Source: Patescibacteria group bacterium
GTDB lineage: Bacteria > Patescibacteriota > Minisyncoccia > Phycocordibacterales > UBA2100
NCBI GenBank assembly: GCA_015485505.1
Contig: WFTK01000004.1
Location: 1 to 33,317, forward strand
DNA: 33,317 nt
Reading direction: 5' to 3'
Part shown: positions 18,748 through 19,285 of the stretch, piece after piece
How positions within the stretch are numbered: the stretch's first letter is position 1
Layout: each line of letters begins with the position of its first letter
Notes under the pieces: model-generated
Database searches by the model: none
The model's input: only the letters and a program-made list of their open reading frames with translations
Told to the model about the DNA's origin: nothing
Position numbers and translations under genes: made by a program

Positions 18748-18772
18748 AACAGCGAGGCCTTGCCTCGCTGTT
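18748..18772. repeat. 25-bp palindrome upstream of the transposase gene
   Basis: AACAGCGAGGC-CTT-GCCTCGCTGTT. Confidence 0.95.
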
Positions 18773-18978
18773 CGGGCTCTAATATTATATATCTATGAGT
18801 TATCGTAAAGAAGAGTTATCAAATGGTGAATACTATCATATATATAATCGTGGGATAGATAAACGAGTAGTATTTGAAGATGCACAAGACTTCTTTCAAT
18901 TTTTGCAAATGCTTGATTTATTTAATCATAAAGAGGCTCTTGGAGGGGTAGAAAAGTACAAATATCCAATAAACCTTA

Positions 18979-19003
18979 AACAGCGAGGCAAGGCCTCGCT
19001 GTT
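18979..19003. repeat. 25-bp palindrome in frame inside the transposase CDS, copy 1
   Basis: AACAGCGAGGC-AAG-GCCTCGCTGTT; encodes QRGKASLL. Confidence 0.95.
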
Positions 19004-19260
19004 AGTAGAGGTAGTTGCCTATTGTATAAATGGCAATCATTATCATCTATTATTAAGACAAAAGTCAGACAATGGCATATCAAGACTAATGCAAAAAGTG
19101 GGGACAGGCTATGCTATGTATTTTAATAAGAAGTATCAACGCTCAGGTAGCCTATTTCAAGGTAAATTTAAATCTATACATATTGGTACTGATGAATATC
19201 TAAAGGGGCTTAGTGCTTATATAAATCTCAATAATATAATGCATCAGTCGGTTAAGTCTA

Positions 19261-19285
19261 AACAGCGAGGCAAGGCCTCGCTGTT
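19261..19285. repeat. 25-bp palindrome in frame inside the transposase CDS, copy 2
   Basis: Identical to the copy at 18979-19003; encodes QRGKASLL. Confidence 0.95.

What the first reader, a model, noticed from the sequence alone, without database searches (positions are those of the whole stretch)
18748..19285. RAYT transposase gene interrupted in frame, twice, by a 25-bp palindrome that also lies just upstream of it
AACAGCGAGGC-NNN-GCCTCGCTGTT occurs at 18748-18772 (upstream, inverted central triplet CTT), 18979-19003 and 19261-19285 (both inside the transposase CDS, central AAG). The two internal copies are read as QRGKASLL without breaking the frame, so the transposase appears to carry its own presumed substrate as peptide insertions. 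RAYTs are known to act on REP palindromes, normally intergenic; in-frame palindromic insertions are known from Rickettsia (RPE). The combination here suggests a protein-tolerated mini-element system mobilised by this Y1 enzyme.
Basis: partly seen in the sequence, partly recalled or inferred. Interest (0 to 1): 0.86.

Follow-up and report, generated by a model that had tools for sequence, protein, structure and literature searches.

The report
Transposase gene carrying its own hairpins
In a tiny-genome bacterium, a REP-type transposase gene contains, readable as protein, two copies of the short DNA hairpin it probably acts on; the same hairpins also sit in frame inside essential genes, apparently swapped in for existing loops or hairpins, a striking variant of a habit already reported for other bacteria.

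Summary
The genome holds 14 copies, seven in frame in coding genes: this RAYT twice, tsaE, map, miaA, prfB and uvrC. A second RAYT elsewhere carries a different palindrome (CTTGGCGGT) at the same two protein loops; its 11 copies include rsmI in this window, and again prfB and tsaE. Across relatives the two RAYT loops hold palindromes that differ from gene to gene but match that gene's own flanking palindromes (57/72 versus 11.5 when permuted), with compensatory changes. Several copies replaced resident sequence rather than adding to it: prfB and map changed no length, and in the pth-rpsA terminator only the hairpin apex differs from a congener. Best reading: a REPtron of Candidate Phyla Radiation type, whose RAYT-cognate hairpins spread into loops and hairpin tips. 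Mobilisation and the replacement step are inferred. In-frame REPs inside tnpA-REP genes (Quentin 2018) and in other genes (Di Nocera 2013) are already published, so this is a new variant, not a new category.

The parts
18795..19487 (+). RAYT1: Y1/HUH REP-associated transposase, 230 aa; HUH = H82/H84 (NHYH); proposed catalytic Tyr = Y142 (AYINLNN motif)
   Evidence: Pfam PF01797 E=6.6e-9; fold match to 4er8; NCBIfam REP_Tyr_transpos is best hit but below its cut-off; H82, H84, Y142 invariant in 32 homologues
18748..18772 (.). Family-1 palindrome, upstream copy, in the 77-bp gap between the divergent priA-like gene and RAYT1; ends 22 nt before the RAYT1 ATG
18979..19003 (.). Family-1 palindrome in frame in RAYT1, site 1 (QRGKASLL), before the HUH motif
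   Evidence: low-confidence loop in the model; covariation 23/32 versus 10.2 shuffled
19261..19285 (.). Family-1 palindrome in frame in RAYT1, site 2 (QRGKASLL), after the catalytic Tyr
   Evidence: pLDDT below 50 at residues 154-162; covariation 21/28 versus 6.3 shuffled
6596..6622 (.). Family-2 palindrome AAACTTGGCGGT-TCG-ACCGCCAAGTTT (cognate to a second RAYT on contig C6), in frame inside rsmI, peptide NLAVRPPSL
   Evidence: +10 aa versus two congeners
6276..6983 (+). rsmI-like rRNA methyltransferase gene hosting the family-2 copy (name from sequence resemblance, no family scan run)

Best explanation
This is a REPtron of the Candidate Phyla Radiation type: a RAYT (HUH/Y1 single-strand endonuclease) with its own short perfect hairpin (REP-like; 9-12 bp stem, 3-nt loop, no GT[AG]G foot). 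SHOWN: in this RAYT lineage the same hairpin occurs upstream, often downstream, and in frame at two loops that bracket the HUH-Tyr core; hairpin sequence differs between RAYT genes but is nearly identical within one gene; each RAYT's hairpin is scattered through its genome, often in frame in loops of housekeeping proteins and at the tips of terminator hairpins. INFERRED: the RAYT recognises its hairpin as single-stranded DNA and copies or exchanges it into new places, preferring existing hairpin tips; events that keep the frame in flexible loops survive selection; the copies inside the RAYT gene are kept identical to the flanks by the same turnover, by selection for binding, or by both. In several cases the hairpin replaced resident sequence rather than being added.
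For: Fourteen family-1 copies, twelve with 0-1 mismatch, none in the reversed-pattern control. In-frame copies in RAYT1 x2, tsaE, map, miaA, prfB, uvrC. A second RAYT in the same genome has its own palindrome at the homologous loops and 11 copies, including rsmI, prfB, tsaE, rlmB, ligA, alaS, pheT. Order-wide: of 70 RAYT2-clade genes, 48 have upstream, 44 downstream and 42 at least one cognate internal palindrome; 57/72 internal copies match own flanks versus permuted mean 11.5 (max 20); half-stem mismatches 0.11 within a gene versus 3.32 between genes. Peptide-level covariation exceeds all 5000 shuffles. Genomes with a RAYT2-clade gene hold 5 or more ACTTGG[AC]GG palindromes in 18/65 versus 1/334 others, Fisher 1e-14. 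Congeners lack a RAYT match and nearly lack the family-1 palindrome. Replacement: prfB and map length-neutral against congeners and solved structures; pth-rpsA terminator apex swapped with lower stem kept.
Against: No biochemical evidence; mobility inferred from distribution only. No GT[AG]G foot (3/256 flanks), which known TnpAREP use. Only one genome per species is held, so no true empty/filled allele pair was seen; congeners are about 70-85% identical at protein level and their loops vary, so 'replacement' could be insertion followed by later deletion. rsmI (+10 aa) looks like plain insertion. The window's RAYT lacks a downstream copy. NCBIfam RAYT score is under cut-off.
Confidence: 0.72

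Rival explanations
1. The internal palindromes are functional regulatory hairpins: RAYT protein binds its own DNA or mRNA hairpins (upstream, site 1, site 2, downstream) to limit its own synthesis, and selection for this binding, rather than mobility, keeps all copies matched.
For: Conserved positions in many RAYTs and matched covariation; the upstream copy lies about 22 nt before the start codon.
Against: Does not explain copies in prfB, tsaE, map, uvrC, rsmI and others; 28 of 70 RAYT2-clade genes have no cognate internal copy. It may act together with mobility.
Confidence: 0.2
2. The palindromes are in-frame mini-elements moved by another, unlinked enzyme or by recombination; RAYT genes are just frequent hosts.
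For: No GT[AG]G foot; CGTC repeats, including the Rickettsia RPE, spread without a known RAYT (PMC3733652).
Against: Palindrome identity follows each RAYT (57/72 cognate), two RAYTs in one genome carry two different palindromes, and genome copy number tracks RAYT presence.
Confidence: 0.06
3. Spread by uptake or homologous recombination, in the manner of DNA uptake sequences that also occur in frame and as terminator pairs.
For: In-place, length-neutral copies and terminator copies resemble the pattern of uptake sequences (own knowledge).
Against: Only 14 and 11 copies per genome of a 21-25 nt perfect motif, with two families in one genome each tied to a RAYT; uptake sequences are shorter and far more numerous (own knowledge).
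Confidence: 0.02

Closest known systems
TnpAREP subclass 2.4 of Quentin et al. 2018 (PMC6006769)
   Same: RAYT genes flanked by REPs, with REPs also inside the tnpA-REP gene without breaking the frame, in a peripheral region of the protein
   Different: Subclass 2.4 has motifs NH[IFV]H / WQ / YIxNNP, long or double-foot REPs with GT[AG]G, and inserts generally between HuH and Y; here NHYH / FQ / Y[IV]NLN, short perfect stems without a GT[AG]G foot, and sites before HUH and after Tyr
Intragenic GTAG/CGTC REPs (Di Nocera et al. 2013, PMC3733652)
   Same: REP palindromes read in frame in housekeeping genes, including uvr genes, DNA ligase and tRNA synthetases
   Different: There mostly intergenic with few intragenic copies, tagged by GTAG or CGTC and often dimers; here 16 of 25 copies are in coding sequence, single, untagged, and several replaced host sequence without length gain
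Rickettsia palindromic elements (RPE; PMC10969869)
   Same: Palindromic repeats tolerated as in-frame peptides
   Different: RPE-1 type about 150 bp and without an associated transposase; here 24-27 bp and tied to a RAYT
S. maltophilia REPtron Sm (PMC8266576)
   Same: Short perfect palindrome with 3-nt loop recognised by a TnpAREP
   Different: REP-Sm carries a GTAG foot; embedding in the gene was not seen in the passages read

Membership tests
RAYT / TnpAREP | HUH motif plus single catalytic Tyr | tested here: met
   H82, H84, Y142 invariant in 32 homologues
RAYT / TnpAREP | Fold of RAYT/IS200 transposases | tested here: met
   AlphaFold model, best PDB match 4er8 E=5e-6, then IS608/ISDra2 TnpA
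RAYT / TnpAREP | NCBIfam REP_Tyr_transpos curated cut-off | tested here: not met
   28.2 bits versus cut-off 80, though the best family; so 'RAYT-type' is the safer label
RAYT / TnpAREP | Gene flanked by cognate REP palindromes | tested here: met
   Window gene: upstream only; clade: upstream 48/70, downstream 44/70
GTAG-type REP | GT[AG]G foot at one end of the palindrome | tested here: not met
   GTAG within 6 nt in 3 of 256 flanks, GTGG in none
GTAG-type REP | Mainly extragenic location | tested here: not met
   7/14 family-1 and 9/11 family-2 copies in coding sequence
TnpAREP subclass 2.4 (Quentin 2018) | In-frame REPs inside the tnpA gene | tested here: met
TnpAREP subclass 2.4 (Quentin 2018) | Motifs NH[IFV]H, WQ, YIxNNP and inserts between HuH and Y | tested here: not met
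   NHYH, FQ, YINLNN; inserts before HUH and after Tyr
IS200/IS605 insertion sequence | Multiple near-identical IS copies, often with tnpB | tested here: not met
   Two RAYTs only, 45% identical; neighbours are priA-like and TraG/HerA-like genes
Rickettsia palindromic element | About 100-150 bp element encoding a conserved peptide | tested here: not met
   Element is 24-27 nt
Mobile REP mobilised by RAYT | RAYT binds and cleaves the hairpin as ssDNA | not testable with these tools
   needs purified protein

The most novel reading that the evidence does not exclude
The RAYT catalyses hairpin-for-hairpin replacement: it cuts out the tip of an existing ssDNA hairpin, or a weakly paired loop, and joins in its own hairpin. 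This rewrites terminators and protein loops in place without target duplication and keeps the copies in its own gene identical to its flanks, a self-homogenising coding element.
Probability: 0.3. Interest if true: 0.87.

Novelty: new variant of a known kind. Interest (0 to 1): 0.7.

Why it matters
How REPs spread is an open question. Here each RAYT marks its own palindrome up to four times in and around one gene and scatters it in a genome of less than half a megabase, so substrate specificity can be read straight from sequence, giving many RAYT-hairpin pairs for testing recognition. The in-place changes in prfB, map and the pth-rpsA terminator suggest replacement rather than insertion, which would be a new outcome for HUH enzymes and a way for selfish DNA to rewrite essential proteins of streamlined genomes. 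It also warns annotators that recurrent peptides such as QRGKASLL or LGGSTAKL in these genomes come from REPs, not from protein motifs.

Tried and rejected
Chance: rejected (0 in shuffles). Fresh interruption of the RAYT gene: rejected, both sites are ancestral in the clade. Simple insertion everywhere: rejected for prfB and map (no length change), though rsmI fits it. GT[AG]G-tagged REP: rejected. My first reading of Y109 as the catalytic Tyr was replaced by Y142 (YINLNN motif) after reading PMC6006769. The first covariation run for site 1 was one residue out of register and was repeated correctly. A profile search for solved relatives by sequence found none; fold search did. One family search failed on wrong coordinates and was repeated.

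Full report
OBSERVATION. Two are read in frame as QRGKASLL, near residues 62-70 and 157-164 of a 230-aa Y1/HUH protein. The model is confident in the core, and both peptides fall in or next to low-confidence loops, one just before the HUH strands and one after the Tyr helix. The best solved match is 4er8, a RAYT bound to a REP hairpin.

GENOME. The 440-kb genome (30 contigs, 96% complete) has 14 copies of the palindrome. Seven are in coding sequence, all in open frames: RAYT1 twice, tsaE, map, miaA, prfB, uvrC (gene names from alignment to solved structures). The others are in gaps, several at the tip of longer locus-specific stems. Three congeners have no RAYT match and only one variant copy between them.

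SECOND SYSTEM. A second RAYT in the genome (C6, about 45% identical) carries a different palindrome, AACTTGGCGGT-CGA-ACCGCCAAGTT, at the two equivalent loops and on both sides. It has 11 copies: RAYT2 twice, its two flanks, rsmI (this window, 6596-6622), prfB, tsaE, rlmB, ligA, alaS, and a variant in pheT (the rsmI, rlmB, ligA, alaS and pheT names rest on my reading of the sequences). prfB and tsaE thus carry one copy of each family. A third, older family (CTTAGTA...TACTAAG) is in pheT of both G000 and congener G005, and in G005 prfB at the very spot where G000 has the family-2 copy.

REPLACEMENT. Compared with congeners, net protein length changes are: prfB family-1 0, map 0, miaA +4, uvrC +2, tsaE about +6; rsmI +10, ligA about +2, alaS +2, rlmB -2, prfB family-2 +3 to +7, tsaE family-2 -1 to -2, for an 8-9 aa peptide. 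prfB and map also align without gaps at this place to solved RF2 and MetAP chains. In the convergent pth-rpsA gap, congener G004 has the terminator AAAAACACCGTGGCC-TACA-GGCCACGGTGTTTTT, while G000 has AAAACACC-[palindrome]-GGTGTTTTTT: the lower stem is shared and the apex differs. Copies at RAYT loci likewise carry more locus-specific outer pairs (about 1.8-2.2) than the 0.35 expected by a rough chance estimate. So replacement of loops and hairpin tips is the more frequent pattern, but true empty alleles of the same species were not available, and loop drift could mimic part of it.

COEVOLUTION. Homologues of RAYT1 (50-73% identity) carry at the same two sites QRGKASLL, QRGSTSLL, HRSKASVL, HRGSTSVL and others; Q goes with SLL (CAG/CTG) and H with SVL (CAC/GTG), as a DNA palindrome demands. 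Peptides that can be encoded by a perfect palindrome: site 1 23/32 versus 10.2 after shuffling halves, site 2 21/28 versus 6.3; for RAYT2 32/34 and 42/46 (0 of 5000 shuffles reach any of them; relatedness is not controlled). At the DNA level, 70 RAYT2-clade genes from one order: 52 have a matched palindrome set, 42 at least one cognate internal copy, 11 all four positions; 57/72 internal copies match own flanks against 11.5 permuted (max 20); 29 distinct half-stems among 52 genes. A broader set of 152 RAYT genes gave 49 palindrome placements inside coding sequence against 3 in codon shuffles, and 21/29 internal palindromes cognate. Genome copy number of ACTTGG[AC]GG palindromes follows RAYT2-clade presence, and other host proteins are hit in other genera, including UvrC at a matching spot.

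MECHANISM. Shown: RAYT-specific hairpins at up to four places in and around the gene, dispersal in the genome, in-frame tolerance in loops, tip placement in terminators. Inferred: recognition and transfer by the RAYT, replacement as the main outcome, and homogenisation of copies in the RAYT gene by turnover or by selection for binding.

COMPARISON. In-frame REPs within tnpA-REP genes are reported as a feature of TnpAREP subclass 2.4, generally between HuH and Y, and some subclass 2.8 members carry one (PMC6006769). Intragenic REPs in repair and tRNA-synthetase genes are reported by PMC3733652. This case differs in motifs, positions, lack of GT[AG]G foot, predominance of coding copies and signs of replacement. 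I found no paper on RAYTs in the Candidate Phyla Radiation, but only an open-access library was searched. Placement of the genome in that group rests on the names of close homologues and loci.

Noticed in passing
   Followed up: yes
G000 prfB (L149) and tsaE (L156): Each of these genes carries one in-frame copy of both palindrome families.
   Followed up: yes
G005 prfB (L150) and pheT (L247): A congener without a detected RAYT has a third palindrome family (LSSRSTKL peptide) at the same prfB loop; a RAYT relative, P0127, has LSSRSTKL at its site 2, so a lost RAYT may be the source.
   Followed up: partly
L335 (G223 uvrC): UvrC of another genus carries an LGGSTSK palindrome at about the same loop as the QRGKASLL copy in this genome: a recurrent host loop.
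   Followed up: partly
window 31042-31067: Perfect inverted repeat TTCCGGCAACGC-NN-GCGTTGCCGGAA in the last part of the window; not linked to either RAYT.
   Followed up: no
window 16825-18717: PriA-like protein with only the 3'BD domain scoring in Pfam; divergent neighbour sharing the 77-bp gap that holds the upstream palindrome.
   Followed up: no
RAYT loci surveyed: Most palindromes share an apex of type GGN-NNN-NCC although the outer stem differs widely, suggesting a constant recognition part.
   Followed up: partly
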